In this document: positions 27,910 through 64,000 of the stretch, in pieces
Position numbering within the stretch: the first letter of the stretch is position 1
Layout of the letters: each line of letters opens with the position of its first letter
Source of the DNA: Methylotuvimicrobium alcaliphilum 20Z
GTDB taxonomy: Bacteria > Pseudomonadota > Gammaproteobacteria > Methylococcales > Methylomonadaceae
Assembly: GCF_000968535.2 (NCBI RefSeq)
Contig: NC_016112.1
Span: 2,418,001-2,482,000 of the forward strand
Length of the DNA: 64,000 nucleotides
Direction of reading: 5' to 3'
Made by a program: the position numbers and the translations under genes
The notes under the pieces: model-generated
What the model saw: the letters and a program-made list of their open reading frames with translations, nothing else
The model's database searches: none
What the model was told of the DNA's origin: nothing

Positions 27910-27943
27910 GTAGACCGCAGGCACTTCCCCCACAGACTCTCGC

Positions 27944-27978: not shown

Positions 27979-27981
27979 CCA

Positions 27982-33060: not shown

Positions 33061-33309
33061 ATGCTTCAAATGTCAAAACTACTAAACAGCCGCGATGAAT
33101 GGAAAAACAAAGCGACTGAGCGCGCAGCTGAGCTTCGTGAGCTTAGAAAAACACAAAAACGTCATTTGAAAAAAATAGCGGAACTGAAACGGAATAATTG
33201 CCAGTTAGAACAGCTTGTCGAAGCAAAAAAACATTACCTTCGAGCATCAGTCAACCCTAGCAACCCAGGATATTGCTGTTGTACCCGCGAATACTTCAAC
33301 GGTTATTGA
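33061..33309 (+). CDS. 5' part of the IS transposase gene, in a different frame
   Basis: The first about 56 codons (MLQMSKLLNSRDEWKNKAT, then lysine- and glutamate-rich helices) look like a coiled-coil N terminus. The frame passes into a run of seven A (33225-33231), after which the sensible continuation lies in the next frame. If the run had six A, the sequence would read straight through into the transposase at 33215. Codons after the run (HYLRASVNPS) are therefore probably not functional. Confidence 0.55.
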   Translation: MLQMSKLLNSRDEWKNKATERAAELRELRKTQKRHLKKIAELKRNNCQLEQLVEAKKHYLRASVNPSNPGYCCCTREYFNGY

Positions 33310-34585: not shown

Positions 34586-34636
34586 ATCAGTCTTTCGACA
34601 GGCTAGGATCGCTCCCACAGAGCATCCGACCCTTTG

Positions 34637-35403: not shown

Positions 35404-35513
35404 TGGGAGCGACGCCTTCGTCGCGATTTTCGAAGCCATTGACTTTCAATACCCACTGATTTTTCCAACAGTACCGTTCCCAGGTATTCGACGAAATAAG
35501 TGTAATTCAACTA

Positions 35514-44220: not shown

Positions 44221-44236
44221 GACGTTTTGACCGTAT

Positions 44237-47908: not shown

Positions 47909-50900
47909 GGTTCGCACGGACAGGTTTCGCCGAGTTCATGCACTGCGGCGGGTTTGATGACATCGATTTGGTGTTCGCCGGCCGGCGCCGAAACCAAAAT
48001 CGATGCCGCAGTCGAGCCTGCCGCCTCATGGACCGCGACGTCTCCTGTCGCCCCGCCGCTATCGTGATACAACACAAAGTCGGTCAAATAATCGACATAA
48101 GTCTGCTCTTCGATGAAACGAATCAATACCGATTGATGAATTTTTCCGCCGAAAGAGGGCTTTGCATCGTTCGCAAAAGCCCAGGGCGACAAAAACCGGG
48201 TAATCGCTTGGCGTAGCGTATTGCGATAAAACGTCTCGTCGAAGCCTTCATGAAAACGGACTTTACACGAGCAGTGCACGGTCTCGAAGCGCGGATTGCG
48301 AACATGCAAGTTGACGAAACAGGGCACGCGCGAACTCAAAAAATCCTTGATTTCATCGAGCAAGCCCAGACTCGTATAGGGTTTGAGGGGATCGCGATAC
48401 GTTTGGAATCGCAGATTGGGAATCGCGACTAGCGTAACATGGCCCGGCGCGAGTTCCCGGTAGATGAAATCGCCGTTTTCTCCGGGCTCGTACTGAGTAT
48501 GATTCAGGCATTTGACGCGATAAATTTGCGGAAAGGCTTCCAAAACCAGGTGTTCGTAATCCCAAAGCGCGACCGCTCTGTCCTTATGACGCAAACGTTC
48601 GCTAACGCGTGTATAAAAAGCCGACGGCGTTTCGGCGCCACGTCCGCCGAACGCTGAAAAAGGCTGCTCGATCTTTTTGACGGCCGCATTTGGCCGCTCC
48701 AACTTGCTAATCGTGCCGGCTTTTAGCGGTTTCGCCGAGAAGCCGGGATCGTTGCCTCGGTCGCTAAAGGTCGCCTGTAAGGCTTGCGCGGAAACGGCCT
48801 GTAAACGGCAAACCGCTTCGCTGTGCGATGCAACCGCCGCCCTTAGCCAATGCATGCCGGGGGGCAAAATCGAGTTGTTGTTATCGGCGTCGTTCGGCAG
48901 TGCAAACCTGATGATGCCGGAGTTCAATAGACCGCCCGCGCCGTCCTCGACTTCGTCTTTCTTGAAAGCGATCCATTCGTTACCCCGTAGATAACTCCAG
49001 TGGATATGCGGGTCGGGTTTGATCGTCAACGGGTCGGCCGTGCCGTCCGCGACTTGGAACAGCAGCGACAGGTTTTGCGGCGGTTCGAGCCCTGTTAGTC
49101 CGATGTAAAACTCGGCTTCGCTCATTATTTCGTCATGGTTTTGTTGGAAACGAAAACCCGGTATCAAATAAACCTTACGCGTCGAATTAAGAAACGGATG
49201 CTGTTCACAGTGACCGAACGGCGCCAAATGAAAGAAAAAGGCTTGCCTATTCCGCCAAATGCCTGAATCGGTGCTATCGAGCGCAATCATTTGCTCATCC
49301 GTGGTGTAATCAAGAGTCAACTCGGTCATCCATGGGCCGACAGGAGGCTTGGGCTTGATAGGCTCGTCACCTAGGACTTCGCCTATTCCCTCAACCATCG
49401 TCGAGACACCGGCAACAAGGCCTGCAACGTTATTATTGAATTGAATAGTCTGGGCACCGAAATCCTCAATAAGTTGACTGCCGGCCGACATAACAACCGA
49501 TGTCTTTTCAGTTACCCACTTACCGGCATTATCGAGCTTGATCATTTCGCTCGCTATCCGATTGATATCATCATGAGTATTGGCTACGAGACTCATAAAA
49601 GTATTGATCGTTTGAGTTAGGTTGGTGACCCCCGTTTTTTCTTCTATTTCTTTTGCAATATTGACGACCGTATTTTTCAAATTGGAAAGCCTGGTTACTG
49701 TTTCATTCAATCGACCAATGAGATCAGGAACTCCCTCACTAGCATCGTCAGGAGTAAGTAAACCTGGAAGATTACTCCAGTCATTGACGCCAACAAGGTC
49801 TATCTCTACGTCAAAAGATTGTTGTAAAAGATTACGGATAGCAGGTCCGATTTCCCCTGTCATTTCGACGTAGACTTGGTTTATTTTTTCAAAAACTTTC
49901 TCAGTGTTTTGGATCACTTCAGGAAACCTTTCAATCAAATCATTGGTAACTTCAGCCATCTGAGTGGGTAATTGACTGAGATTTTCAATGACTGAATTGT
50001 GCAAATCATTGAATTCTTGCACCCTAGTATTGATTTGGCCGATAAAATCGACTGCCGTCTGCACTCCCTTTGCCAATTCCTTATCGTTATCCATCAGCTT
50101 TCTGATGTAATCGATCAAAGCTTTTTCATACTTGTCTTGCCCGAAACCTTCGCTCGTCGAAAACCGCACAAAACCATGACGCGCAGCGGAGTTATAAAAC
50201 ACTGGCTCATTGAAATCGGCGGCATCAACGATGGTTTGATTGATTTCGCTATCTAGCGAATAGGAATCGCTTGTAATCGCTTTGGTCTCGCTAGTCGCTT
50301 GTTTCCAGGTCCCCGACTGTAAATAATCGATTTTGATATTGACTTGGGTACCGAAAGGCTCGGGAGGATTTTGCCATTGCAAATTGACTTTCGCTGAAAG
50401 CAGTCTTTTTTGAAAGGCTTCTTTGGAACCCAGGATTAATGAACTATTGGCCACCGGAGCTGGGCCGAATGGCTGGAAAGGCTTAGAGGCGACCACCGAA
50501 CCGAAATCATTGGAAACCTTTAAGGTTCTGAGTCCTTTGACGGCAACGTTCAATCCGATTTTATCGAGCACTGCGTTGGCGAGTAACGCCACAGGATAAA
50601 GGCGGTCGCTTTGATGCCGAAATTTGACTAATAAAATCGGCAAGTTGGTTGAAAAATCAAAGCCATGAACTTTAGGGCTATACGCCGTTATTGCAGGATC
50701 GGCCCCGGAAAGTTTGATTTTCAATTGAAGCCTGCCTTGCACGCTTTCAAATTTCATTGCCGACTTTTCGAGCCAACCTTCTTCGGTAGACAAAGAACAA
50801 ACCAGATCCGCTTTCAAATCGCCGGGCAACGTATTGAAAGTAATATCACTCAAATAAAATTCGACCGTCACGGTCCGCTCGCCTTCGGCCAACCATAAAT

Positions 50901-52302
50901 AGTGCGAAGCGATAGCAAAACCCAGTTCGGCCTCGGGCATCGCAATGCTGTCCAGTTGCGCATTGCTATAGCGTTTATTGAAAAAAGGATGCCAAGATTG
51001 TTCTTCGTTGGTCAGTTTCTCCCCCAGTCCGTCTTCGGAATCGGCAACCGGCGAGGCATAGTAACGGCCCGACTGTTTAGCCGCGTTGACACCCAATTCG
51101 GCAACCGCTTCGCCGCCATGCCGGTAAACGGTCTTCAGCGCCGCGACCTTCGCTTTATTGGCAATGAAATCGCGGTCGTTCGTAAAAAAGGCCTCGATGC
51201 CTGACTCGTCCTTTCCGGCCTTGAACGACACGCCACTATCGAACAGGTGGCTGTCGGCATGTTTAGCCAATTCGGCCAATAAATGGACCCGAGGCGGTTC
51301 GGCGGGTTTTTCCTTGAGCTGTAAAATGTCCCGGTAATAAAAATCCAGGTGCCGGCTTGTCAAGGTGTTGATCTCGGCCCGCGTCCCTTCGAATAAGCGT
51401 AAGAAGGCGATCAGCAGCGCATAATGCGGTTCATGATTGCCGTTTTGAATGAACGAATGTTCCAATTCTTGTTTGGCTTCAACGACGATGCGCGCATAGA
51501 TTTTTAAAAAATCATCGAATATCGATGTAAAAAGGTTGTGACTGGCGATCGAATTATGGATCGAAAACCAATAATTCGGATTGGACGGGTCAAGCAGTGG
51601 GCCGAAAACCCCCGCATCCTTGACGATGCTGTCGATGTAATGCGGCCAATCCGGAAAGTTGCCGATGATCCAATCTTTCGAAAAGGGCCTTCGATAGATA
51701 TCGCCGAAGGCTTGGGCTTCTTGACCGAATATCGTCAATTCCGCAGCAACGTCCAGCTCGTCGGCGGTCAATCCGAAATCGCTCTCGTAAGCCTTGTAGT
51801 AGGCGATAAGCCGTTTGAAACCTTGCGCCGACTGCGATCGTATGCGGTTTTGCAAAAGATTTTTCAGCGCCGTATCGACCGGCAAGTTTTCTTTCAAGCG
51901 GTCTAGTCGCTTGGCCATGGTCGCCGCGATACTGAACAAGAAACCCAAGCGTTGTTTGAGCGCCTCTGCTTGCGTTCGATTGCCGCTATTATTCAAAAAA
52001 TCGAAATAGGCTTTGACTGCCGAGCGGTACGCGTCGACGTCTTGTATCGCGGCGACAGCCAACAACACAGAGACATCCTTATCGAAAAAACTTTGCCAAT
52101 CGCCGGTGACGCTGTTGTTCGGGTCATAATAATTGAGATAGGCCGAATAGGCTTTTGCAAACACCAGACCGTACTCCGGTCCTCGTTCATTGACCGGCAC
52201 ATGGTTCGGATCCAAAGCCTTCGGCACACGCAAGTCTCGGCTGCTGCCTTCATGCGCTAGCCTCGAGGCATCGGTGTTTTGTTTGCAATCCGAGTTGGCC
52301 AT
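47905..52302 (-). CDS. eCIS baseplate protein, Afp11-like, with a large coiled-coil insertion
   Basis: 1465 residues, longer than usual for the role. The C-terminal part has the gpJ-type segment ALWDYEHLVLEAFPQIYRVKCLNHTQ and KDFLSSRVPCFVNLHVRNPRFETV, which identify an Afp11/gpJ baseplate wedge. The N-terminal half contains LLAELAKHADSHLFDSGVSFKAGKD, typical of eCIS gpJ proteins. Between about residues 700 and 985 lies an acidic coiled coil (TAVDFIGQINTRVQEFNDLH; VFEKINQVYVEMTGEIGPAI). Its DNA (about 49350-50200) is more A+T-rich than the flanks. The insertion seems to be an added domain. Position: just after gp25, as in other clusters. Confidence 0.85.
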   Translation of the reverse strand: MANSDCKQNTDASRLAHEGSSRDLRVPKALDPNHVPVNERGPEYGLVFAKAYSAYLNYYDPNNSVTGDWQSFFDKDVSVLLAVAAIQDVDAYRSAVKAYFDFLNNSGNRTQAEALKQRLGFLFSIAATMAKRLDRLKENLPVDTALKNLLQNRIRSQSAQGFKRLIAYYKAYESDFGLTADELDVAAELTIFGQEAQAFGDIYRRPFSKDWIIGNFPDWPHYIDSIVKDAGVFGPLLDPSNPNYWFSIHNSIASHNLFTSIFDDFLKIYARIVVEAKQELEHSFIQNGNHEPHYALLIAFLRLFEGTRAEINTLTSRHLDFYYRDILQLKEKPAEPPRVHLLAELAKHADSHLFDSGVSFKAGKDESGIEAFFTNDRDFIANKAKVAALKTVYRHGGEAVAELGVNAAKQSGRYYASPVADSEDGLGEKLTNEEQSWHPFFNKRYSNAQLDSIAMPEAELGFAIASHYLWLAEGERTVTVEFYLSDITFNTLPGDLKADLVCSLSTEEGWLEKSAMKFESVQGRLQLKIKLSGADPAITAYSPKVHGFDFSTNLPILLVKFRHQSDRLYPVALLANAVLDKIGLNVAVKGLRTLKVSNDFGSVVASKPFQPFGPAPVANSSLILGSKEAFQKRLLSAKVNLQWQNPPEPFGTQVNIKIDYLQSGTWKQATSETKAITSDSYSLDSEINQTIVDAADFNEPVFYNSAARHGFVRFSTSEGFGQDKYEKALIDYIRKLMDNDKELAKGVQTAVDFIGQINTRVQEFNDLHNSVIENLSQLPTQMAEVTNDLIERFPEVIQNTEKVFEKINQVYVEMTGEIGPAIRNLLQQSFDVEIDLVGVNDWSNLPGLLTPDDASEGVPDLIGRLNETVTRLSNLKNTVVNIAKEIEEKTGVTNLTQTINTFMSLVANTHDDINRIASEMIKLDNAGKWVTEKTSVVMSAGSQLIEDFGAQTIQFNNNVAGLVAGVSTMVEGIGEVLGDEPIKPKPPVGPWMTELTLDYTTDEQMIALDSTDSGIWRNRQAFFFHLAPFGHCEQHPFLNSTRKVYLIPGFRFQQNHDEIMSEAEFYIGLTGLEPPQNLSLLFQVADGTADPLTIKPDPHIHWSYLRGNEWIAFKKDEVEDGAGGLLNSGIIRFALPNDADNNNSILPPGMHWLRAAVASHSEAVCRLQAVSAQALQATFSDRGNDPGFSAKPLKAGTISKLERPNAAVKKIEQPFSAFGGRGAETPSAFYTRVSERLRHKDRAVALWDYEHLVLEAFPQIYRVKCLNHTQYEPGENGDFIYRELAPGHVTLVAIPNLRFQTYRDPLKPYTSLGLLDEIKDFLSSRVPCFVNLHVRNPRFETVHCSCKVRFHEGFDETFYRNTLRQAITRFLSPWAFANDAKPSFGGKIHQSVLIRFIEEQTYVDYLTDFVLYHDSGGATGDVAVHEAAGSTAASILVSAPAGEHQIDVIKPAAVHELGETCPCEP

Positions 52303-52305
52303 GAT

Positions 52306-52743
52306 TCAATCGCTATCGGGCAAGAGGTTGACGGCTGCGGTTAGGTTAATATCGGTACCCTCCAATTTGTAATAGGGATAAACGAAATTGAAGCGCGAGT
52401 TCGTAGCCTTGACGCGGTAGATCACTTCGATCAATACCACGCCCTCGAGCTCCAGGCTATCGTCGAGCCGAACGCTTTCCAGTTCGACACGCGGCTCATG
52501 ATATAAAATCGCCGATTCCACTTTGTCCGCCATCAAGGTCTTCATGCGCGTATCCAAATTTTCGAACACCAACTCCTGCAAATTACAGCCGTATCTAGGC
52601 AGCATCGTGCGCTCGCCTTGCGCGGTGCTCAGTAGAATCTCAAGGCTCGAAGCGATGTCCGCTTCGGCTTCGAGCATCGTAACGCCGCCACTTGCCCGGT
52701 TGAATGTCGGCGGAAAAGACCAGCCGCGTCCGAGAAAACTCAT
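52306..52743 (-). CDS. eCIS baseplate protein, gp25-like (Afp9)
   Basis: 145 residues. The gp25 pattern is clear: ADIASSLEILLSTAQGERTMLPRYGCNLQELVFENL, with the conserved GERxMxPxxG, and the C-terminal strand VLIEVIYRVKATNSRFNFVYPYY. This small protein starts sheath polymerisation on the baseplate in phage T4 and T6SS. A GGAGG site precedes the ATG. It lies between the PAAR and Afp11-like genes. Confidence 0.94.
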   Translation of the reverse strand: MSFLGRGWSFPPTFNRASGGVTMLEAEADIASSLEILLSTAQGERTMLPRYGCNLQELVFENLDTRMKTLMADKVESAILYHEPRVELESVRLDDSLELEGVVLIEVIYRVKATNSRFNFVYPYYKLEGTDINLTAAVNLLPDSD

Positions 52744-52744
52744 G

Positions 52745-53014
52745 TCATCCTCCTATCAATACTGTCGGCATACCGGGCGGCAGGATCGCGCCGCCCGAAG
52801 CGCTCGAATCGCCGACACGCGCGGCCGGCATGCCGCCGATCATGACCGTTGCCGAACCCATGATAATCGCATCGACTCCGCACGAATCTCCCAAGCGCGC
52901 CGCCGGCAGACCGCCGATCAAAACGGTCGGTTCGCCCGGCGGAATGATCGGCACCGGGGCGCCTTGCGTCGCGGTGCTGACGATCATGTCGGTGATTCTG
53001 GCTGCCGGTAACAT
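52745..53014 (-). CDS. PAAR-repeat spike tip protein (Afp10 role)
   Basis: 89 residues with repeated PAAR units: MLPAARITDMIV, GGLPAARLGDSCG, GGMPAARVGDSSA, and glycine-proline turns such as PPGEPTVLIGG. PAAR proteins cap the VgrG-like spike with a sharp, zinc-bound cone. There is no C-terminal effector extension. A GGAG Shine-Dalgarno lies eight bases before the ATG, 12 bases after the spike gene. Confidence 0.95.
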   Translation of the reverse strand: MLPAARITDMIVSTATQGAPVPIIPPGEPTVLIGGLPAARLGDSCGVDAIIMGSATVMIGGMPAARVGDSSASGGAILPPGMPTVLIGG

Positions 53015-53026
53015 CGCTTCATCTCC

Positions 53027-54793
53027 TCAATTGATCTGCACGACGCCGCCTTGGATCGTGGTGCTGGCACTGCCCTTGACCGTGGTGCTGGCGCCGGAAA
53101 TTTCGGCCGAACCGGAACCCGAGGCCTTGAATTCGGCTTGCGCGCTCAGTTCGGTATTGATGCCTTCGATCTTGACGTCACCGGCGGCTTGTAATATCAA
53201 GTCTTTGACGCTTTCGAGCTTGATGCCGTCGGCATTCATGGTGACTTTATTGCCGTTCTGATCCTCGATCACGACAGCCTGATCGGCTTCGGACAAAGTC
53301 AGACGGTTGCCGCCCGGCGTTTCGAGCACGACGACCTTGTTTTCATCGTCGAAGGTCAGGGCCATCTTTTCGCGGCTGACATAGCCTTTCAGATGATTGT
53401 CGTCCTTCGCTGTCTCCGGCGCCGGTTTCGCACTGCTGTGGCACATGCCCAACACGACCGGATAACGCGGATCGTCACCGAGAAATCCGACCACGACTTC
53501 ATCGCCGATCTCGGGCCGAAAAAATGTTCCTCGACCGTCGCCGGCATCGAGCGTTGCAAGCCTTGCCCAAATGCCTTCATCGGCCGTGTCGACCAGCGGC
53601 AGCCGAACCTTTATTCTGTCTTCGCCTTTGGGATCGCTTTCCAATACCGTCACGACGCCCATTTGCAATCCGCAGACCGACGGCAATAATCCCGCCGCCG
53701 GCAACGGGCGTAAATTATAGGTTTCGGCGAATAGATCGGGATTTAGGCCCAGTTGCGCATCGGTTTCCCAGTTGCCGCCGGAAACGCAATGCCGCACGCC
53801 CGACACATAAAACAGTCCGGCAAAGCGCTCGCCGATGCCGCTGACTTCGATCACGGTCCCCGGCATGACCTCGGCAATGCCTTGAAATTTCGCTCGGCCT
53901 CTGATTCTGGCTAGACGCTCCTTCAACAAACGCGCATCGGCCCAGGTTTTCAATTCCGGCTGACTCAATCCGCCGCCATGGCGTATTTCATGCATTTCAG
54001 TGCCTAATATCGCCGCCAATGTCTCGGCATCGATATTGCCGGCACTGGCGGATTTCGGTTCGGAAGCTTCGGCTTCGATCAATGTCTGATCGGCCGCATG
54101 CCAAGCCGTAGCCTTGATTCCGGGACTTTGCAAACGTGCATCGATTTCGGCATCCAGTTCCAACAGGGTCGAACCGTAACCGACCTTCACGACCGATTCT
54201 TCGCCGGTTGCGGGCTTGCCGACGGTAATCGCATCGTCGCCGACATTGACGACGAAACCGTTCGCTTCGGCCCGGCATAGCATAAAATCCCAATCGGTCG
54301 ATTCGAATTGCACGACCTCTTGTAAATCCGGTTCCGTCGTATCGCTCGTGCCGGTCAAGCCGTAATCGCCGAATAATGTTTCGATAATGTCGCTGTCTTT
54401 TTGTTCGGTAAAGTAGCGGCTGTGTATGCCGGACGTCATTTTGACCGCTTCATGCCGGCAGTCCAGAATCAAGAGGCTTTCGTTTTTTCTGAGCTTGATA
54501 CTATGCTTGACGATCATGCCTTTAAATACCGTGGCGTTTTGCGAGCGGTAACCGAACTGAATCTCGATCTTTTGACCCGGAATGAACAATCCGGTATTAC
54601 TGGCGGGAAAGTCGGCTTGCGCCGCTTCGCCGTCTTTCAGTTGAATCGTGGCTGACGGAATCCGGTTCAATTCTTTATTGACGCTGACCGATAGCACCTG
54701 AAATTGTCCCGGAATTTCGGTGCCGTCGATTAATAAGGCCACCGTGCAGACATCGGGAGTGGCCGGCGTTGGAATGGCGGATTCGTTTCTCAT
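53027..54793 (-). CDS. eCIS central spike protein, VgrG-like (Afp8)
   Basis: 588 residues. It begins with a gp27-like domain (FQVLSVSVNKELNRIPSATIQLKDG; IQFGYRSQNATVFKGMIVKHSI). An OB-fold/gp5 base follows (KVRLPLVDTADEGIWARLATLDAGDGRGTFFRPEIGDEVVVGFLGDDPRYPVVLG). It ends in a beta-helix needle of short repeats (SADQAVVIEDQNGNKVTMN-like; DVKIEGINTELSAQAEF; GASTTVKGSASTTIQGGVVQIN). It is the trimeric spike below the tube. No C-terminal toxin is fused. It overlaps the LysM gene by four bases. Confidence 0.95.
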   Translation of the reverse strand: MRNESAIPTPATPDVCTVALLIDGTEIPGQFQVLSVSVNKELNRIPSATIQLKDGEAAQADFPASNTGLFIPGQKIEIQFGYRSQNATVFKGMIVKHSIKLRKNESLLILDCRHEAVKMTSGIHSRYFTEQKDSDIIETLFGDYGLTGTSDTTEPDLQEVVQFESTDWDFMLCRAEANGFVVNVGDDAITVGKPATGEESVVKVGYGSTLLELDAEIDARLQSPGIKATAWHAADQTLIEAEASEPKSASAGNIDAETLAAILGTEMHEIRHGGGLSQPELKTWADARLLKERLARIRGRAKFQGIAEVMPGTVIEVSGIGERFAGLFYVSGVRHCVSGGNWETDAQLGLNPDLFAETYNLRPLPAAGLLPSVCGLQMGVVTVLESDPKGEDRIKVRLPLVDTADEGIWARLATLDAGDGRGTFFRPEIGDEVVVGFLGDDPRYPVVLGMCHSSAKPAPETAKDDNHLKGYVSREKMALTFDDENKVVVLETPGGNRLTLSEADQAVVIEDQNGNKVTMNADGIKLESVKDLILQAAGDVKIEGINTELSAQAEFKASGSGSAEISGASTTVKGSASTTIQGGVVQIN

Positions 54794-55497
54794 GGTCGAG
54801 CCGTTTTGTTGACCGGAGGAAACATGATTTCACGGCCGGGTTCGAGCGACCTGAAGTGATCCAATCGGTTGATTTTTGCGATTTCCAAGTAATAACGCGG
54901 ATCGCCGTAGATTTTGTAACACATCAGCGGCAACGTATCGCCGGCCTTGACTCTGCGGCTGTGGCTCAAGTCGGGCGAGCTTTTGTTTTCTTTCGCGGCG
55001 CGTTTTTCTTCTTCGATACTGCTTTTGAACTTGACCTTGACCAATGCCCGTATCGGCGTGCCGTCCGGTCTGAACAGTTTGTAAGTAATGCCGACTTCGA
55101 CGACCCGCCCCTTAAAAATCGAATGCTCGCCCCAAACCAGCTTAAAATGACGCGGTTCGTGAGCATCGCCTTTATAGCCGGTCAACACTTCCTTGAACGC
55201 CTTGATGTCGTCGGCGATCGAGTCGCGCGGTTTACCGTCGATGATGCCGGTATTGTCGAATAAAAATTCGAAGGAAATTTCTTCCGGTTCGGTATATTCG
55301 TATTTTAATTGTTGACCGCTGGTCCCCTGCCCTTGCCCGGATTCGGAAAACTTAAGCTTATAGTCGAGCGTATAGCTCTCCGGATTGATCAAGGCCTCGA
55401 AGCTTTCGTCGGCTTCGAGCAAGCCGCCGCTTTCGGCTTTTTCCGAATCGGAGAAAGCCAGTATCAACATCTTTTCCAATTTCCCGTTTTCGGCCAT
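54790..55497 (-). CDS. eCIS LysM-domain protein (Afp7-like)
   Basis: 235 residues. The N-terminal domain LINPESYTLDYKLKFSESGQG and EFLFDNTGIIDGKPR is the tube/spike adaptor part (gp53-like). The C terminus is a LysM module: KAGDTLPLMCYKIYGDPRYYLEIAKINRLDHFRSLEPGREIMFPP. In Afp/PVC structures this protein joins tube, spike and baseplate. It starts inside the stop codon of the small gene upstream (TGATG). Confidence 0.93.
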   Translation of the reverse strand: MAENGKLEKMLILAFSDSEKAESGGLLEADESFEALINPESYTLDYKLKFSESGQGQGTSGQQLKYEYTEPEEISFEFLFDNTGIIDGKPRDSIADDIKAFKEVLTGYKGDAHEPRHFKLVWGEHSIFKGRVVEVGITYKLFRPDGTPIRALVKVKFKSSIEEEKRAAKENKSSPDLSHSRRVKAGDTLPLMCYKIYGDPRYYLEIAKINRLDHFRSLEPGREIMFPPVNKTARP

Positions 55498-56138: not shown

Positions 56139-56576
56139 TTATACTTTCATTAGTTTGAGTCCTTCGTGCGCGACTTCGATGGTTTCGATCGCGACTTCAT
56201 TGGCGTCGGACTTTAAATCGGGCGCGGTGACCTTGACCGGAAAACAACGTGTCGCCGACCAAGCCGCAACCGGTTCGTGTTTTTCGTTCAATAAACGAAT
56301 CACGACATCGCGGCGGCCTTCGACTCGTTCGTTGGCGATTTCGTCGAGCCAATCGTTATAATCGAAGTCGCCTTCGAATTTGCCGCGTTTCATCGTGATA
56401 TTGCTGAGTTTGATCAGTCCGGGCATGCTGATCTTGCTGAAATCCTTGCTGTCGCTATGCCGGTATTCGACCTTTTCACGCTCCATCACAAGGCCAGTGA
56501 CTTCGGTAAAACTCAATTTTGCACCGCCCCAATCCACTTGAAAGTGAAAACGCGGTAATGGATAAACTTGCGCCAT
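56139..56576 (-). CDS. eCIS main inner tube protein (Afp1-like)
   Basis: 145 residues, gp19/Hcp-type: PRFHFQVDWGGAKLSFTEVTGLVMEREKVEYRH, then LIKLSNITMKRGKFEGDFDYNDWLDE and EVAIETIEVAHEGLKLMKV. It stacks as hexamers to form the tube that carries cargo. It follows the sheath gene, the opposite of the classic Afp1-sheath order but common in other eCIS clusters. Confidence 0.94.
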   Translation of the reverse strand: MAQVYPLPRFHFQVDWGGAKLSFTEVTGLVMEREKVEYRHSDSKDFSKISMPGLIKLSNITMKRGKFEGDFDYNDWLDEIANERVEGRRDVVIRLLNEKHEPVAAWSATRCFPVKVTAPDLKSDANEVAIETIEVAHEGLKLMKV

Positions 56577-56618: not shown

Positions 56619-58058
56619 TCAGGATTCGGGCATTTTGTGCGAGAATCTGAGAATGATGAATTCGGCCGGCCTAACCGCAGCCATGCCGATTTCGATAATC
56701 ATCCGGCCTTCCAAAATATCGAGCGGCGTCATCGTTTTACCCAAGCCCACCGCGACATAAAAGGCATGCTCCGGCTTGATGCCTTGCAACGCGCCTTGCC
56801 GCCATAACACGGTCAAGAAGTTTTCGATCATCGCCTGTACCTTGACCCAGGTATTCGCATCGTTCGGTTCGAAAACGAATTGTTCGGTCGCCTTTTTGGT
56901 CGATTCCTCGACGAAAATAAAAAAACGTCTGACATTGACATAACGCCATTCGTTGTCGTTGCCGGCTAGAGTACGGGCACCCCAAACTAGTGTGCCTTTG
57001 CCTATGAATGGCCGAATCGCATTGACCGATTTGCCGGCCGTCGGATCGACGTTCATTCGATCTTGCTGCACGTTCGAAAACTCAATCGTCGGCTTGATCG
57101 CGGCAGTCACACTGACGTTCGCCGGTGCTTTCCAGACCCCCCGGCTGTTGTCGACCGCCGAGTAAATACCCGCGATCGCGCCGCTCGGCGGCATTTTACA
57201 AGGCAAGTCTCGAATCGCCGCCTTAGCCTTTTGATAGACCTGATTGTTTCCGCTTATCAAGGTCTCGAGTTTAACAGGGCTCGCTGACGTGCCGTCGATC
57301 ACATGAACGAAATCGACTTCATTTTCATCGATCGCGAAATCGAGTACGGTTTCTATATTCGGCGCATAGGCCGCACCGTATTTGAGATTGTTCGCTCCGA
57401 TTCCGTCGCTTCTAAAATTACCGATGCCGGTCAACAGGTTAGCGGCGCTGTTGGACATCGACACCGACCCTCCGTGAACATCCATGATGACGAAACGGTC
57501 TTTCAAGGCTTCGCATTGCGCCAACGCCCGATTGTGTAAGGTCGCGAAGTCGCTGATACCACTGAGAAACTGTGCTTCCGGAAATATGATCAAGGTCGGT
57601 TCGTCCGCAGTTTCCAATGCTTCCAATCCTGCCTCCAGATCGTTTCTAACCAGATCACCGCCCAAATCCTTATAAGGGTTGACCGAAACGATATAGCAAG
57701 GTCCGCCACCGTTCGCGAAAAACAATAGCAGCGCATAATACATAACATGTTTCGAACGGTTGCCTTCCGCCAATGTCGCAACCGCCGTTTGTGTCAATGT
57801 ATTTCCGTCTTCGTCCTGCGTTTCGTTGAGCGTCACGACTATTGCCTCCTCGGGTTGGGGACCGCCGAAAAGACTTTCGTATTCAACCAGCGAGGCAATA
57901 CGCGTCGGTTTGAGATGAAGGTCGTCATCAACGAATTCCATGGCCTTCTCGGTGTAACCGATAAACGCGGGAATCGCGGTTTCGACCGGTGCAATGGACG
58001 GAGGGAATTTCGGAATTTCCTCGATATAAACGCCAGGAGTTTTATACGCTGTAGCCAT
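56619..58058 (-). CDS. Contractile sheath protein
   Basis: 479 residues. The N terminus ATAYKTPGVYIEEIPKFPPSIAPVETAIPAFIGYTE is diagnostic of phage-type tail sheath proteins. The C-terminal domain ends RPAEFIILRFSHKMPES after GKGTLVWGARTLAGNDNEWRYVNVRRFFIFVEESTKKAT. It forms the outer sheath whose contraction drives the tube. There is only one sheath gene here, where Afp has three. Confidence 0.96.
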   Translation of the reverse strand: MATAYKTPGVYIEEIPKFPPSIAPVETAIPAFIGYTEKAMEFVDDDLHLKPTRIASLVEYESLFGGPQPEEAIVVTLNETQDEDGNTLTQTAVATLAEGNRSKHVMYYALLLFFANGGGPCYIVSVNPYKDLGGDLVRNDLEAGLEALETADEPTLIIFPEAQFLSGISDFATLHNRALAQCEALKDRFVIMDVHGGSVSMSNSAANLLTGIGNFRSDGIGANNLKYGAAYAPNIETVLDFAIDENEVDFVHVIDGTSASPVKLETLISGNNQVYQKAKAAIRDLPCKMPPSGAIAGIYSAVDNSRGVWKAPANVSVTAAIKPTIEFSNVQQDRMNVDPTAGKSVNAIRPFIGKGTLVWGARTLAGNDNEWRYVNVRRFFIFVEESTKKATEQFVFEPNDANTWVKVQAMIENFLTVLWRQGALQGIKPEHAFYVAVGLGKTMTPLDILEGRMIIEIGMAAVRPAEFIILRFSHKMPES

Positions 58059-58083: not shown

Positions 58084-59091
58084 TTACTCATAAATCTCCG
58101 AAACGAGTTTAATCACTCTATCGCCGCTTAAAACCGGCTTGACTGAGTTTTCGGAGGGTTTGCGGCGATTGCCGGCATTGCCGAAATAAGTTGAGGGCAA
58201 CGGCTCGGCGGTTTCGAATTCCAAGGAACCGTTGCTTTGGTTTAAATAATGCCAAAATGTCGAGCGATTTTTTAGTCGCACATGAAACGAAGGCGGGGTT
58301 TGCTTTGCCCTGCCCTGACTATCGATCAAACTGAATCGGCTATCGCCCGGTCTTTCGGCATGCAAGCGAATCAGCGCAAATACATCCTTCGGCAGATTCG
58401 AATCCAAGGCAATACCGCGAAAAACCGCGCCCTCCATCTCCGGCACTTCCATTACCGGAACATCGCCTTGATGTACATAAACCGGCCAAAGCCCGGCTTG
58501 ATCGGTAATCGTATGAAGGAGATCGCCCGGCTGGTCTGCGATAAGCTGTGTCAGCGAGTTGCCCGATAAGCCTATCGCTTCGACGAGATCGTCATTGGCG
58601 ATAGCCGGAAATTCCTTGGATAAAAACAGGACTTCATCGTTGCCGGCACCTCGAGAAGCACCGGTCAAATTCGATAAGACCGGTACGTTTTCCTTGTACA
58701 AATAACGTTTGCCTAGTTCGGCATCATAAAGATCGACGATGCGTTGCCGTCTCAGCGTCAACGCGGTGTAATTAATGAATGCCGGGTTGCGCACGATAAC
58801 CGCAAACTCGAAAAGCGCATCGCTAGCGATAACAGCCTCTTCCGGAACCGCCGCGATCACGCCCAAAGTGCTATTGATCACAATAGCCCGATAGGCTTCA
58901 AGCTGTTTCTCTGTCGATGAGGTCGGCCGAATCTCAAGGAAGGTGCGGACATCATAAGACGATAAGCGTTGTTGTTTTTTCAGCGGGTCGGCGATCGAAT
59001 CGAATACGGTTGAGCCATCGTCCAGCCAATAGTGATGCAGCACCTTCACTTCGAAGAGGCGCCGATATTTAACGCGAATTTGCTCACTCAT
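58084..59091 (-). CDS. Unrecognised eCIS-linked protein between cap and sheath genes
   Basis: 335 residues. It starts SEQIRVKYRRLFEVKVLHHYWLDDGST and has no signal peptide or membrane segment. Its pattern is alternating beta strands with helices (GIIAAVPEEAVIASDALFEFAVIVRNPAF-like). The C-terminal part reads SRFSLIDSQGRAKQTPPSFHVRLKNRSTFWHYLN. I do not recognise a family. It overlaps the cap gene by eight bases and lies 26 bases before the sheath gene, so it is co-expressed with the particle. A role in the cap or its adaptor is a guess from position only. Confidence 0.55.
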   Translation of the reverse strand: MSEQIRVKYRRLFEVKVLHHYWLDDGSTVFDSIADPLKKQQRLSSYDVRTFLEIRPTSSTEKQLEAYRAIVINSTLGVIAAVPEEAVIASDALFEFAVIVRNPAFINYTALTLRRQRIVDLYDAELGKRYLYKENVPVLSNLTGASRGAGNDEVLFLSKEFPAIANDDLVEAIGLSGNSLTQLIADQPGDLLHTITDQAGLWPVYVHQGDVPVMEVPEMEGAVFRGIALDSNLPKDVFALIRLHAERPGDSRFSLIDSQGRAKQTPPSFHVRLKNRSTFWHYLNQSNGSLEFETAEPLPSTYFGNAGNRRKPSENSVKPVLSGDRVIKLVSEIYE

Positions 59092-59725
59092 TGGCGACCG
59101 CCAATCCGGATTTATGCCGGAAATCGTGAACGACTTCAGTAATGACGCCCCTCTCGCTTTTGACCGCCCGGAATTTCAAATCCAACATACGCAGTACATA
59201 GATCGCAAACGGGTATTGTTTACCGCCCAAGGTTCCCCAGAGGTGATTGACTTCCTCCATCGTCGGAGAATACAGATCGAAAATCAGTTTGAACGATTCG
59301 AGTTGATCGAGCGGATTGGCGGGCGCATTATTCGAAATCGACGCCGGATCGACCGTGTCCTGCGTGAAAACGTTTTGCGCCTGAAAGAAGCGTATCGCTC
59401 GCGACAGCATCAATAAGGCATTGGTGTAATTACTGTGCGAGGCGACGATCAGTATTTGAAAATTGAGAAAGGTCGGCGGGTTTTCATAGACGGTGCGGAG
59501 TGTAACGTCGTTGCGCGTGTAGTTCGGCACGTTTTTTAAGGTTTTTTCTTCCTTGATGTTGACCAACGACAAATAAAGCACATCACGCGGATTCGCGCCC
59601 GCCCCGTTTCCGAAACCGTCGGCTAGGTTCCCCAAGCGACAGACATTCATGACATCCGCCCCGTAATGGCCAGTCAAATGTCGATTGAGTTCGTTCAGGA
59701 CTATCGTCAGAGCATGTGCGATCAT
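59084..59725 (-). CDS. eCIS tail-terminator/cap protein, DUF4255 (Afp16/Pvc16-like)
   Basis: 213 residues from the ATG at 59723-59725, giving MIAHALTIVLNELNRHL, the normal Pvc16 start. AGGAAG lies six bases before it. The frame extends to an ATG at 59768-59770, but that lies at the predicted transcription start of the sigma-54 promoter, so it is unlikely to be used. Family segments include VLYLSLVNIKEEKTLKNVPN, PPTFLNFQILIVASHSNYTNALLMLSRAIRFFQ and LWGTLGGKQYPFAIYVLRMLDL. The protein closes the distal end of the tube and sheath. It is the first gene of the operon. Confidence 0.92.
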   Translation of the reverse strand: MIAHALTIVLNELNRHLTGHYGADVMNVCRLGNLADGFGNGAGANPRDVLYLSLVNIKEEKTLKNVPNYTRNDVTLRTVYENPPTFLNFQILIVASHSNYTNALLMLSRAIRFFQAQNVFTQDTVDPASISNNAPANPLDQLESFKLIFDLYSPTMEEVNHLWGTLGGKQYPFAIYVLRMLDLKFRAVKSERGVITEVVHDFRHKSGLAVANE

Positions 59726-59779
59726 GCGGTGCTTCCTATTACCGAATTTATTCATTGAATAGCTTTTCATGAATAAACG

Positions 59780-59794
59780 GCAAAAACGATGCCA
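59780..59794 (-). promoter_or_regulatory. Predicted sigma-54 (-24/-12) promoter of the eCIS operon
   Basis: On the minus strand TGGCATCGTTTTTGC fits the consensus TGGCAC-N5-TTGC: the GG and GC doublets have exactly ten bases between them, and TGGCA and TTGC are perfect. Transcription would start near 59768, giving a leader of about 44 bases before the cap gene ATG at 59725, with AGGAAG as ribosome-binding site. Two palindromes further upstream could be enhancer sites. Confidence 0.75.
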
Positions 59795-59870
59795 TGCTCG
59801 ACGAATCGATTAATAATACAAATTATTGATAAATATAAGAAAATATTAGATCGAATTCGTCACGTTTTGC

Positions 59871-59898
59871 TCTCTGTAACAACAGCCTGTTACAGAGA
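59871..59898. promoter_or_regulatory. Palindrome 1, candidate enhancer-binding site
   Basis: TCTCTGTAACA-N6-TGTTACAGAGA, a perfect 11-base inverted repeat with a 6-base centre. It is centred about 116 bases upstream of the predicted sigma-54 start. The same half-site occurs in a second palindrome 81 bases further upstream. Paired distal palindromes upstream of a -24/-12 promoter are typical of sigma-54 activator sites. Confidence 0.7.
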
Positions 59899-59953
59899 AC
59901 GAAGGAAAGCTTATCAATCGAATAGAATATGCTTTATTAACAGAGACTTGAAA

Positions 59954-59977
59954 TCTGTAACATTAAGGTGTTACAGA
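59954..59977. promoter_or_regulatory. Palindrome 2, candidate enhancer-binding site
   Basis: TCTGTAACA-N6-TGTTACAGA, a perfect 9-base inverted repeat with the same half-site and centre length as palindrome 1. It is centred about 197 bases upstream of the predicted start, and 34 bases after the spoVR stop codon. It could also fold as a hairpin in the spoVR transcript, but no T-run follows. Confidence 0.65.
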
Positions 59978-60010
59978 CTGTGACAGTTGTATTCGAATTA
60001 CTGTGTAGGA

Positions 60011-61507
60011 TTAAAGTTTGCATTCCATTATCGTCTGCAGCGTTCCGTCTTCATCCACTGTTTCAAGCCGAACATCGAAGCCCCAAAGTCTTGCGACATG
60101 CTTTAAGACATGTTCGGCGCTTTGAGCTAAGAACCTTCTGTGATATTGGGTATGGCGTAGCGTCAGCGAACGGTCGCCTTTACGGTCGACATGATAAACC
60201 TGAATATTGGGTTCGTTACTACCCAAATTGTACTGTTCGGACAAGGCTTGCCGGATATGCCGATAACCGTCTTCGTCATGAATCGAGGTCACGGCGATCT
60301 CTTGCTCATTGGAATCATCCAAGATGGAAAATAGTTTGAGGTCGCGAATGACTTTAGGGGATAAAAACTGGCTGATAAAGCTTTCGTCCTTGAAATTCTG
60401 CATCGCGAAATGCAGTGTCTTGTTCCAATCGCTGCCGGCTATTTCCGGAAACCAACGTTCGTCCTCGGGCGTCGGCGTTTCGCAAATCCTGCGGATGTCG
60501 CTCATCATCGAGAAACCCAAGGCATAGGGGTTTATACCCGAATAATAAGGGCTATCGAAGGCCGGTTGGTAAACGACATTGGTATGCGATTGGAGAAATT
60601 CGATCATGAACCCATCGGTCACCAGACCTTCCTGATACATTTGATGCAAGATCGTGTAATGCCAGAAAGTCGCCCAGCCTTCGTTCATCACCTGAGTTTG
60701 GCGTTGCGGATAAAAATATTGGGCTATCTTGCGCACGATGCGAATGATTTCGCGTTGCCAGGGCTCCAGGAAAGGGGCATTTTTTTCAATGAAATAGAGA
60801 ATATTTTCTTGAGGTTCCTCGGGAAAGCGGACGGCTTCGTTAGCGGCGCTATAGACCGGTTCTTTGGTCGGTATGGTGCGCCATAACTCGTTGACTTGGG
60901 ATTGCAGATAGGCTTCGCGATCCCGCTGCCGGGCTTGCTCTTCTTGTAGAGACAATCTGGAGGGGCGTTTGTAACGGTCCACGCCAAAGTTTCTCAAGGC
61001 GTGGCAAGAGTCGAGAATGGCTTCGACCTGCTCTTCGCCGTAGCGCTCTTCGCACTCGGCTATATAATTTTTGGCAAACAGCAGATAGTCGATAATAGAA
61101 TCGGCGCTGGTCCAGGTCGTGAATAAGTAATTATTTTTGAAAAACGAATTGTGGCCGTAAGCGGCATGCGCGATTACCAGAGCCTGCATCGTCATGCTGT
61201 TTTCTTCCATTAAATAGGCGATACAGGGGTTCGAATTGATCACAATTTCATAAGCCAGGCCCATTTGGCCTTTTTGATAGCGTTTTTCGTTCTTGACGAA
61301 TTCCTTGCCGAATGACCAATGGCTATAGCCGATGGGCATGCCGACCGAGGCATAGGCGTCCATCATTTGTTCGGCCGTGATGATTTCCAGTTGTACCGGA
61401 TAGGTATCCAATCCGAAATCACTTGCGATACGGGCGATTTCCGTATGGTATTTTTCAATCAGCTCGAAGGTCCACTCCGATGTTTCCGATAGGGTTTTTC
61501 TACTCAT
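60011..61507 (-). CDS. ycgB: SpoVR family protein (YcgB-like)
   Basis: 498 residues, close to the 510 of E. coli YcgB. Conserved segments are DAYASVGMPIGYSHWSFGKEF, HAAYGHNSFFKNNYLF, and EGWATFWHYTILHQMYQEG, with repeated histidines and acids that suggest metal binding. It ends in a C-terminal domain with DRSLTLRHTQYHRRFL. The biochemical activity is not known; in enterobacteria the gene belongs to the general stress/stationary phase group with yeaGH. It overlaps the upstream DUF444 gene by four bases (ATGA), so the three form one operon. It ends 285 bases before the eCIS cap gene. Confidence 0.95.
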   Translation of the reverse strand: MSRKTLSETSEWTFELIEKYHTEIARIASDFGLDTYPVQLEIITAEQMMDAYASVGMPIGYSHWSFGKEFVKNEKRYQKGQMGLAYEIVINSNPCIAYLMEENSMTMQALVIAHAAYGHNSFFKNNYLFTTWTSADSIIDYLLFAKNYIAECEERYGEEQVEAILDSCHALRNFGVDRYKRPSRLSLQEEQARQRDREAYLQSQVNELWRTIPTKEPVYSAANEAVRFPEEPQENILYFIEKNAPFLEPWQREIIRIVRKIAQYFYPQRQTQVMNEGWATFWHYTILHQMYQEGLVTDGFMIEFLQSHTNVVYQPAFDSPYYSGINPYALGFSMMSDIRRICETPTPEDERWFPEIAGSDWNKTLHFAMQNFKDESFISQFLSPKVIRDLKLFSILDDSNEQEIAVTSIHDEDGYRHIRQALSEQYNLGSNEPNIQVYHVDRKGDRSLTLRHTQYHRRFLAQSAEHVLKHVARLWGFDVRLETVDEDGTLQTIMECKL

Positions 61508-62766
61508 GCTTTTGACTTCTCGAAAAGTTTACGAAATACCGGATAGATATCGGCCACTGTGGCAATTCGTTGCATCGCAAAATTGCTCCAGGTGTCTTTC
61601 AGAGTCGAATATTCGTGCCAGAGGTTTTGATGTCTGTCCTCGGTGATTTCGATATAGGCGTAATACTGCATATAGGGCATGATTTGCTCGGACAGTATTT
61701 TTTTGCAGTCTATCGAATCGTTATCCCAGTTGTCGCCGTCGGAGGCCTGCGCGGCATAGATATTCCATTCTGAGATCGGAAAACGTTCCTTGATGATCTT
61801 TTTCATCAAGATGAGTGCGCTCGATACGACCGTACCGCCGGTTTCCCGGGAATAGAAAAAGGTTTCTTCATCGACTTCATTGGCTTCGGTATGATGAGAG
61901 ATAAATACGACCTGGGTTTTTTCATAGGTGCGCGTCAGAAAAAGATACAGCAGCATGAAGAAGCGTTTTGCCATATCTTTTTCTTCGGGCCCCATCGAAC
62001 CTGAAACATCCATGATGCAAAACATCACCGCTTGGGTCGTCGGTTTAGGCATGTCTATGCGGTTGTCGTAGCGTAAATCGAAGGTATCGATAAACGGAAT
62101 GCGCTCGATTTTTTCCTTGAGCCGTTTGATTTCTTCACGCAACTCGATAACCACGGCATCGGTTTCGCTGTAACGTTTGAGCAAGTCTTCCAGTTGTGCT
62201 TCGGCCTCCTCAATCCTATTACGATAGGGCGCGCGCAAGGCGATGCGCCGTCCCATCGCGCTCCGCAATGAACGAATGACATTGATATTGGTAGGTATAC
62301 CGTCGCTGGTATGGCCGGCGCGCACTTTTTTGGTTTCCTGGAGCGTCGCCAGACGGGTTTTGACTAGGTTGGGCAACTCGAGATCTTCAAAAAAGAAGTG
62401 CAAAAATTCCTCACGAGTTAATTCGAAGACGAATTCATCCATTCCTTCGCCGGAATCGGAGGCCTGTTTGCCTCGCCCGCCTCCGGCGCTTTCGGGCCGT
62501 TTTATTTTATCGCCTTGCCGAAACTCCTTGTTTCCCGGATGAATGATCTCCCGATAACCGTCGTTACCATGGTGAAAAAAAGGCTCCGAGATATCTTTTG
62601 CAGGAATGGAAACTTTTTCGCCTTTATCCAAATCCGTCACGCTCCGCTCGTTTACCGCGTCGGTCACGGCCTTTTTAATCTGGCTGCGAAAACGGCGAAT
62701 AAATTTCTGCCGGTTGACGGCGCTCTTATTCTTTCCGTTCAGACGTCTATCTACAATTTGAGTCAC
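61504..62766 (-). CDS. yeaH: DUF444 protein, YeaH/YhbH family
   Basis: 420 residues, close to the 427 of E. coli YeaH. The N-terminal third is highly charged (RRFRSQIKKAVTDAVNERSV; GNKEFRQGDKIKRPES). The C-terminal half is von Willebrand A-like: VMFCIMDVSGSMGPEEKDMAKRFF holds the DxSxS metal site, with FISHHTEANEVDEETFF and GGTVVSSALILM after it. It works with the PrkA/YeaG kinase in stress response, mechanism unclear. The start is a GTG at 62764-62766, supported by AGGAG seven bases before it. Confidence 0.95.
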   Translation of the reverse strand: MTQIVDRRLNGKNKSAVNRQKFIRRFRSQIKKAVTDAVNERSVTDLDKGEKVSIPAKDISEPFFHHGNDGYREIIHPGNKEFRQGDKIKRPESAGGGRGKQASDSGEGMDEFVFELTREEFLHFFFEDLELPNLVKTRLATLQETKKVRAGHTSDGIPTNINVIRSLRSAMGRRIALRAPYRNRIEEAEAQLEDLLKRYSETDAVVIELREEIKRLKEKIERIPFIDTFDLRYDNRIDMPKPTTQAVMFCIMDVSGSMGPEEKDMAKRFFMLLYLFLTRTYEKTQVVFISHHTEANEVDEETFFYSRETGGTVVSSALILMKKIIKERFPISEWNIYAAQASDGDNWDNDSIDCKKILSEQIMPYMQYYAYIEITEDRHQNLWHEYSTLKDTWSNFAMQRIATVADIYPVFRKLFEKSKA

Positions 62767-62783
62767 ACATTTCTCCTCAAGCG

Positions 62784-64000
62784 TTAAGACGATTTACGCA
62801 CCCTCAAATACCATTCGCTAAGTAAGCGCACTTGTTTTTCGGTATAGCCTTTTTCAATCATCCGATCGATAAACTGTTCATGTTTCTTCTGATCTTCGGG
62901 CGAAGCCTTGGCGTTAAAAGAAATCACCGGCAATAAGTCTTCTGTCGTTGAAAACATTTTCTTTTCGATCACAGTGCGAAGTTTCTCGTAACTGGTCCAG
63001 GCCGGATATTTTCCGCCGTTTTTGGCGCGAGCCCGTAACACAAAGTTGACGATTTCGTTACGGAAATCCTTCGGATTACTAATACCGGCCGGTTTCTCGA
63101 TTTTTTCAAGTTCATCGTTCAAGGAGCTCCGGTCGAACATCTCTCCGGTATCCGGGTCGCGGTAATTGGTATCCTGTATCCAATAATCGGCATAGGTCAC
63201 GTAGCGATCGAAGATATTTTGTCCGTATTCCGAATAGGATTGCAGATAGGCGGTTTGAATCTCCTTGCCAATGAAATCGATGTATTTTTGCGTTAGATAA
63301 CCCTTGAGGTAAGACAAATACCTCTCCTCGACTTCGGCCGGAAATTGTTCGCGTTCGATTTGCTGTTCGAGGACATACAAAAGATGAACCGGATTGGCCG
63401 CGACTTCGGTGTTGTCGAAGTTGAATACCTTAGACAGAATCTTAAAAGCGAACCGAGTGGAGAGACCGGTCATGCCTTCATCGACGCCGGCGAAATCGCG
63501 GTATTCTTGATAAGACTTGGCATGCGGATCGGTATCTTTCAGATTCTCGCCGTTATACACCCGCATCTTGGAAAAAATATTGGAGTTTTCCGGCTCTTTC
63601 AAGCGGGATAACACCGCAAATTGCGCCATCATTTCTAAGGTGCCGGGCGCGCATGGCGCGTCGTGCAATGAGCTGTTTTCCAGCAGTTTGTCGTAGATTT
63701 TGATTTCTTCCGAAACGCGCAGGCAATAAGGTACCTTGACGATATAAATCCGGTCGAGAAACGCTTCATTGTTTTTGTTGTTCCTGAAAGCCTGCCACTC
63801 CGATTCGTTCGAGTGGGCCAGAATGATGCCCTGGAACGGTATCGCCGGAAAACCTTCCGTGCCTTTGTAATTGCCTTCCTGCGTCGCGGTCAGCAGCGGA
63901 TGTAGTACCTTGATCGGCGCCTTGAACATTTCCACGAATTCCAGCAAGCCTTGGTTGGCCCGGCACAAGCCGCCCGAATAGCTGTAGGCATCGGGATCGT
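62784..64000 (-). CDS. yeaG: PrkA/YeaG serine protein kinase, C-terminal part, runs off the right edge
   Basis: 405 codons are visible without a start. The sequence enters at DPDAYSYSGGLCRANQGLLEF, part of the AAA+-like domain, and continues AFLDRIYIVKVPYCLRVSEEIKIYDKLL. The C-terminal kinase-like domain follows, with LSYLKGYLTQKYIDFIGKEI, to a final WYLRVRKSS. PrkA is a stress-linked serine protein kinase. It is first in the yeaG-yeaH-ycgB operon, with 17 bases to yeaH. About 240 N-terminal residues lie outside the window, judged from the usual 640-residue length. Confidence 0.95.
   Translation of the reverse strand, partial: DPDAYSYSGGLCRANQGLLEFVEMFKAPIKVLHPLLTATQEGNYKGTEGFPAIPFQGIILAHSNESEWQAFRNNKNNEAFLDRIYIVKVPYCLRVSEEIKIYDKLLENSSLHDAPCAPGTLEMMAQFAVLSRLKEPENSNIFSKMRVYNGENLKDTDPHAKSYQEYRDFAGVDEGMTGLSTRFAFKILSKVFNFDNTEVAANPVHLLYVLEQQIEREQFPAEVEERYLSYLKGYLTQKYIDFIGKEIQTAYLQSYSEYGQNIFDRYVTYADYWIQDTNYRDPDTGEMFDRSSLNDELEKIEKPAGISNPKDFRNEIVNFVLRARAKNGGKYPAWTSYEKLRTVIEKKMFSTTEDLLPVISFNAKASPEDQKKHEQFIDRMIEKGYTEKQVRLLSEWYLRVRKSS

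What the first reader, a model, noticed from the sequence alone, without database searches (positions are those of the whole stretch)
59780..59977. Sigma-54 promoter with two upstream palindromes controls the eCIS operon
The minus strand shows TGGCATCGTTTTTGC with exact GG-N10-GC spacing, and upstream two copies of TCTGTAACA-N6-TGTTACAGA with the same half-site and centre length. The predicted start falls where the long cap-gene frame would begin and so explains the shorter start with AGGAAG. This points to an enhancer-binding activator that switches on a contractile injection system. Control of eCIS by sigma-54 is, to my knowledge, little described.
Basis: partly seen in the sequence, partly recalled or inferred. 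Interest (0 to 1): 0.82.

Follow-up and report, generated by a model that had tools for sequence, protein, structure and literature searches.

The report
Sigma-54 switch for phage-tail-like injector
A methane-eating bacterium appears to switch on the genes of its phage-tail-like injection machine through a special promoter and a dedicated activator protein, and the same kind of switch sits beside such machines in distantly related bacteria.

Summary
In the whole genome TGTNACA-N6-TGTNACA (0 mismatches) occurs four times: two sites upstream of the eCIS operon and two beside a sigma-54 activator (EBP) gene about 9 kb away, before a protease-like gene. Both pairs are 81 bp apart. The EBP belongs to a well-separated group of 26 sequences bearing seven phylum labels. 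Downstream of the EBP gene, 10 of 23 group regions have the palindrome followed 99-119 bp on by a sigma-54-like promoter, against 0 of 53 control regions. eCIS genes lie in 12 of 25 group loci, against 0 of 54 controls. A second eCIS operon in two sister genomes and an eCIS operon in an Acidiferrobacterales genome carry the same architecture. The EBP's receiver domain has lost its phosphorylation residues. Limits: some group members sit beside polysaccharide-export or unknown operons, 8 of 21 group genomes lack a strict site, and 70 of 78 Methylococcales genomes with the eCIS cap gene lack this EBP. No expression or binding data were available. Ten paper searches listed no report of sigma-54 control of eCIS.

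The parts
59780..59794 (-). sigma-54-type promoter TGGCATCGTTTTTGC (-24 GG, -12 GC); predicted +1 about 59768
   Evidence: conserved in 3 related genomes; same position relative to the palindrome in related loci
59873..59896 (.). proximal activator-site palindrome TCTGTAACA-N6-TGTTACAGA
59954..59977 (.). distal activator-site palindrome, 81 bp from the proximal one
59979..59985 (-). extra half-site TGTCACA next to the distal palindrome (TGTAACA in G124)
59819..59831 (-). candidate IHF site TATCAATAATTTG (consensus recalled) between palindrome and promoter
   Evidence: found at 7 of 8 promoters examined of this genus, 0 of 13 of other lineages
59732..59737 (-). ribosome-binding sequence AGGAAG
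59084..59725 (-). first eCIS gene, Pvc16_N cap protein (start ATG 59725; longest frame begins 59770)
56619..58058 (-). eCIS sheath protein
56139..56576 (-). eCIS tube protein (Phage_T4_gp19)
52306..55497 (-). CIS_tube, Phage_base_V spike and gp25 proteins
31109..52302 (-). rest of the eCIS genes identified: Baseplate_J, tape measure (CIS_TMP), eCIS_core and AAA proteins (with unassigned ORFs between)
60011..63968 (-). spoVR, DUF444 and prkA (runs off the window), the genes between the eCIS and the activator; no strict sites of their own. The activator (EBP) gene itself lies outside the window, at G000:C2:2487116-2488468

Best explanation
The stretch is the control region of the eCIS operon. 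A dedicated sigma-54 activator (450 aa: receiver-like domain, AAA sigma-54 domain, Fis-type HTH; gene at G000:C2:2487116-2488468, about 9 kb upstream) binds the TGTNACA-N6-TGTNACA sites. DNA looping, in this genus perhaps helped by IHF, brings it to RNA polymerase with sigma-54 at TGGCATCGTTTTTGC; its ATPase opens the promoter and the operon is transcribed from about 59768. The receiver-like domain lacks the phosphorylation residues, so control is probably by a ligand, a protein partner or the activator's own level rather than by a kinase. Shown by sequence: sites, promoter, activator gene, rarity, linkage, conservation. Inferred: binding, RpoN dependence, IHF, signal.
For: Four strict sites in the genome, in two pairs each 81 bp apart: at the eCIS and beside the EBP gene. 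EBP domains and GAFTGA present; one rpoN found. Strict palindromes in 12 of 25 group loci and 0 of 54 control EBP loci; eCIS genes in 12 of 25 and 0 of 54. Palindrome plus promoter unit in 10 of 23 group downstream regions, 0 of 53 control regions, mean 0.0 in 200 shuffles; whole loci 14 of 25 against 0 of 54. Second eCIS operon in G164 and G166 and an eCIS operon in L215 have the same unit. In Methylococcales all 9 of 9 genomes with the EBP have the pattern against 26 of 292, and 8 of 9 have Pvc16_N against 70 of 292. 27 of 27 viewed Pvc16_N loci from genomes without the EBP lack the palindrome in the 1.5 kb upstream.
Against: No expression, footprint or mutant data. 8 of 21 group genomes have no strict site. 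L032, L034, L037, L044 EBPs sit beside other operons. L047 has palindromes but no promoter at my threshold; L043, L046 and L054 are weak or lack units. G124 has one strict site elsewhere and G129's only strict site is not at its EBP. The protease-gene promoter has GT, not GC, at -12. Unit thresholds were set after seeing examples. The palindromes can also fold as RNA hairpins.
Confidence: 0.87

Rival explanations
1. The palindromes are RNA hairpins (terminator or stabiliser after spoVR) and the -24/-12 match is chance.
For: Both fold as RNA hairpins: proximal -20.5 kcal/mol (z -5.5, 0 of 200 shuffles as good), distal -12.1 (z -3.0, 1 of 200). The distal one begins 33 bases after the spoVR stop.
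Against: Neither is called terminator-like. The only other strict sites in the genome are another pair with the same 81 bp spacing. Relatives have half-sites that do not pair fully (for example TGTAACA with TGTGACA in L033 and L040), in other gene contexts, followed by sigma-54-like promoters.
Confidence: 0.04
2. The promoter is sigma-54 dependent, but a different activator of this genome uses the palindromes.
For: Twelve strong Sigma54_activat hits in the genome.
Against: The other two sites lie beside this EBP gene, and site and EBP group go together in other genomes while 54 control EBP loci have none. Eight of the other 11 fall outside the group in the tree; 3 were not extracted by my script, but only this EBP matches P0001 at 1e-80 or better in the genome.
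Confidence: 0.05
3. The sites bind a repressor or a sigma-70 regulator and the sigma-54-like element is unused.
For: Palindromes alone do not tell activator from repressor; one weak sigma-70-like match lies nearby on the other strand.
Against: The site-to-promoter distance is kept (94-103 bp in Methylococcaceae-type loci, 113-119 in most others) and the linked regulator has a sigma-54 activation domain with GAFTGA. The one sigma-70-like match is no more than shuffles give (1.1).
Confidence: 0.04

Closest known systems
NtrC-type bacterial enhancer-binding proteins (for example NtrC, AtoC, PrsR of PEP-CTERM systems)
   Same: Receiver-like, AAA sigma-54 and Fis-type HTH domains; GAFTGA loop; palindromic sites about 100 bp upstream of a -24/-12 promoter
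   Different: No NCBIfam model shown reaches its cut-off; the phospho-acceptor and Lys are lost in nearly the whole group; linked to eCIS
GerE (LuxR-type), BTAD and RfaH regulators of eCIS (Geller et al. 2021, PMC8213781, passages read)
   Same: Regulator genes lying near eCIS loci
   Different: The EBP has HTH_8 and a sigma-54 domain, not GerE; 'sigma' does not occur in that paper's main text
VasH-type sigma-54 control of type VI secretion (recalled, not compared here)
   Same: A contractile injection machine under a sigma-54 activator
   Different: Type VI secretion is anchored in the cell; eCIS particles are phage-tail-like; no sequence comparison with VasH was run
TyrR box TGTAAA-N6-TTTACA (recalled)
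   Same: Similar outer half-site letters and a 6-base centre
   Different: TyrR's model is far below its cut-off for this EBP (223.8 against 576 bits)

Membership tests
sigma-54-dependent promoter | GG and GC 10 bases apart, near TGGCAC-N5-TTGC | tested here: met
   conserved in relatives
sigma-54-dependent promoter | rpoN gene in the genome | tested here: met
   one Sigma54_DBD match, E 5e-70
sigma-54-dependent promoter | transcription depends on RpoN | not testable with these tools
   needs a deletion mutant
NtrC-type enhancer-binding protein | AAA sigma-54 activation domain with GAFTGA | tested here: met
   PF00158 E 4.8e-68; GAFTGA in 24 of 26 group rows, GAYTGA in L054, none in L042
NtrC-type enhancer-binding protein | Fis-type HTH at the C end | tested here: met
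   HTH_8 E 1.4e-13
two-component response regulator | phosphorylatable receiver (Asp, Lys) | tested here: not met
   aligned phospho-acceptor is Asp in 2 of 26 group rows against 53 of 62 controls; Lys in 0 of 26 against 57 of 62; in this EBP Glu and Tyr
PEP-CTERM response regulator (TIGR02915) | score above the curated cut-off | tested here: not met
   333.6 bits against 502.6
eCIS | cap, sheath, tube, spike, baseplate, tape measure, AAA genes together | tested here: met
GerE-type eCIS regulator | GerE DNA-binding domain | tested here: not met
   not among the Pfam matches of the EBP
intrinsic terminator | G+C-rich hairpin followed by a T run | tested here: not met
   neither palindrome is in the terminator-like list

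The most novel reading that the evidence does not exclude
An undescribed family of lone activators, with a receiver domain that can no longer be phosphorylated, is a travelling master switch for contractile injection systems. It has moved between phyla together with eCIS loci, its palindrome and its sigma-54 promoter, and it senses its cue without a kinase. In this genus it co-activates two eCIS types and a trypsin-like protease gene. In many other lineages the first gene after the promoter is a small DUF3467-like protein that could be its partner.
Probability: 0.5. Interest if true: 0.8.

Novelty: new variant of a known kind. Interest (0 to 1): 0.72.

Why it matters
What switches eCIS on is largely unknown; the survey read here in passages names GerE, BTAD and RfaH as regulators with 'yet unknown signals'. 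A defined activator, binding site and promoter in a cultivable methanotroph genus would make eCIS induction directly testable. The palindrome-promoter unit also serves as a search key: here it led to a second eCIS operon and to a candidate co-regulated protease gene.

Tried and rejected
Chance: rejected by genome-wide counts and control loci. Terminator or hairpin: see rivals. A named NCBIfam activator family: no cut-off reached among the best 25 models shown for each of 9 proteins. A kinase partner: among protein clusters shared by at least 3 of the 25 neighbourhoods given, apart from the EBP and DUF3467-like ones, none looked other than eCIS; names of some clusters rest on earlier Pfam hits, not on a scan of every member. 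prkA-spoVR as a target: no strict sites there.

Other eCIS: of 30 Pvc16_N loci viewed (of 78 genomes with a match), 27 are from genomes without the EBP; none has the palindrome in the 1.5 kb upstream, and only two score 10 or more for a sigma-54-like site. Their regulation stays unknown. A survey of 347 genomes of the phylum of L034's genome found one match at E 1e-104 or better, the query's own genome, so the group is rare there.

Sites elsewhere: 3 of 18 strict sites in 21 group genomes are at neither an EBP of the group nor eCIS: G302:C21 (end of another EBP-like gene), G303:C558 (before a response regulator with GGDEF), G321:C196 (within about 1 kb of a NuoF-like gene).

Literature: ten searches. 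I saw listings, and passages of PMC8213781 and PMC10599522 (its one 'contractile injection' hit is in the reference list). No listed title or abstract start reports sigma-54 control of eCIS; the other listed papers were not opened, and one search listed 20 of 376. Subscription papers are mostly not held.

Full report
OBSERVATION. The promoter match alone is weak; the palindromes are not (2 hits, shuffle mean 0.05). The first gene downstream encodes a Pvc16_N cap protein, followed by sheath, tube, spike, gp25, Baseplate_J, tape-measure, eCIS_core and AAA proteins, so the eCIS is real. The likely start is ATG 59725 with AGGAAG, conserved in the four genomes aligned. The ATG at 59770 is out of frame in two of the three relatives and TTG in the third.

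GENOME SEARCH. The genome (4.80 Mb, two contigs) is Methylotuvimicrobium: its EBP is 97% identical to that of M. buryatense 5G. The strain, perhaps M. alcaliphilum 20Z, is recalled and not tested. TGTAACA-N6-TGTTACA occurs three times with no mismatch and TGTNACA-N6-TGTNACA four times: two at the eCIS and two at C2:2486979-2487079, each pair 81 bp apart. At 2 mismatches there is no enrichment over the reversed pattern (7 against 12). The second pair lies just downstream of a gene for a 450-aa sigma-54 activator (receiver-like, Sigma54_activat, HTH_8) and upstream of a trypsin-like peptidase gene and a small protein gene. Between these and the eCIS lie a LysR-type substrate-domain protein, pirin and prkA-DUF444-spoVR. 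One rpoN was found.

RELATIVES. A scan of species genomes kept 79 loci. In a tree of 88 rows (79 loci and 9 of the 12 strong EBPs of this genome) the EBP and 25 loci form 26 rows on one side of a branch with SH-aLRT 100 (quick method, root for drawing only). They bear the labels Pseudomonadota, Acidobacteriota, Thermodesulfobacteriota, Myxococcota, Fibrobacterota, Planctomycetota and Nitrospirota; most are metagenome bins, so single labels may be wrong. The other 54 loci are my controls. Strict palindromes: 12 of 25 group loci, 0 of 54 controls. eCIS genes by tblastn with window proteins: 12 of 25 and 0 of 54 (four of the 12 by AAA and eCIS_core proteins only). Downstream of the EBP gene, a palindrome (spacer 5-7, at most 1 mismatch) followed 85-130 bp on by a promoter scoring at least 9 of 11 occurs in 10 of 23 group regions, 0 of 53 control regions, mean 0.0 in 200 shuffles. 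Over whole loci it is 14 of 25 against 0 of 54 (830,014 bp). These thresholds were set after seeing examples. Start-to-start distances are 94-103 bp in Methylococcaceae-type loci and 113-119 bp in most others; L046 (105) and L054 (91) are weak units.

OTHER TARGETS. In two sister genomes (G164, G166) a further site stands before a second eCIS operon that begins with a sheath gene, with TGGCATGTTCCATGC 99 bp on. In the Acidiferrobacterales genome of L041 a second site stands before a sheath/tube operon with a promoter. In a Kuenenia genome the strict site lies about 1.7 kb downstream of a second EBP-like gene, which matches in two frames, and directly before a DUF3467-like gene. Over 21 group genomes 13 of 18 strict sites adjoin the EBP gene, two are those just named, and three lie elsewhere; 8 of 21 genomes have none. 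The protease-like gene has the palindromes and, 102 bp on, TGGTATCATTATTGT, with GT rather than GC at -12. A candidate IHF site (consensus recalled) sits 42-44 bp after the proximal palindrome at 7 of 8 promoters of the genus examined and at 0 of 13 of other lineages; it is at most a feature of this genus.

CO-OCCURRENCE. In Methylococcales 9 of 301 genomes have the EBP at 59% identity or more, the next best being 42% or less among the rows listed. All 9 contain the degenerate pattern, against 26 of 292 others; 8 of 9 have Pvc16_N, against 70 of 292. Fisher p values are 1.4e-9 and 1.1e-4, but the genomes are related and not independent. Against the reading: one of two sites in G124 lies elsewhere, and in G129 the only strict site is not at its EBP. 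G129 and L031's genome G302 show the same places, and L031 has a 7-base-spacer unit at the EBP. Most Methylococcales with Pvc16_N (70 of 78) lack this switch.

ACTIVATOR. The receiver-like domain has lost the phospho-acceptor (Asp in 2 of 26 rows, 53 of 62 controls) and the Lys (0 of 26, 57 of 62), while GAFTGA is kept in 24 of 26 and SRMTLYRK of the HTH in 19 of 26 rows (three others lack that end). Among clusters shared by at least 3 of 25 neighbourhoods given are a DUF3467-like small protein (12), sheath (9), AAA-WHD ATPase (7), tube (7) and eCIS_core (6), and no histidine kinase cluster. Pfam adds DUF3467 in the genomes of L031 and L040 beside the EBP; it was not found in five Methylotuvimicrobium genomes, the Methylicorpusculum genome or G320, so it cannot be a general partner. 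Some group members sit beside polysaccharide-export (L032, L034), subtilase (L037) or radical-SAM (L044) genes. The group is enriched at eCIS, not confined to it.

WHAT IS KNOWN. Geller et al. 2021 (PMC8213781; [quoted passage not shown] 'sigma' does not occur in its main text. None of ten searches (listed in Tried and rejected) listed a report of sigma-54 control of eCIS. The machinery, a sigma-54 promoter with an NtrC-type activator, is a known kind; its use here, the palindrome and the unphosphorylatable activator group appear new.

VERDICT.

Noticed in passing
L024 about 5660-5830 (G000:C2 about 2486660-2486830): A palindromic repeat element lies between the candidate sigma-54 promoter and the protease-like gene and is missing at the same place in L028. 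A 27-base piece of it matches 133 places in the genome (58 forward, 75 reverse, up to 2 mismatches).
   Followed up: partly
L216:5355 (G302:C21): A perfect AT-rich TGTAACA-N6-TGTTACA palindrome sits at the end of a different EBP-like gene; the same 20 bases (other strand) occur in G207, which lacks the EBP.
   Followed up: no
L024:4516-5517: Trypsin-like peptidase gene (Trypsin_2, NAL1_N) plus a 94-aa protein gene behind a paired site; a candidate accessory gene of the eCIS regulon, 96% identical in L028.
   Followed up: partly
DUF3467-like genes, for example L033:3067-3558, L037:11998-12384, L044:11820-12068: A small DUF3467-like protein is encoded near the EBP in 12 of 25 neighbourhoods, also where no eCIS was seen.
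   Followed up: partly
window 25082-29232: A group II intron reverse transcriptase (27982-29232) and a Cas3-like helicase (25082-27556) lie beyond the eCIS genes.
   Followed up: no
window 60011-63968: prkA-DUF444-spoVR lies between the activator and the eCIS in this genus, but the activator adjoins the eCIS directly in Methylicorpusculum L029.
   Followed up: no
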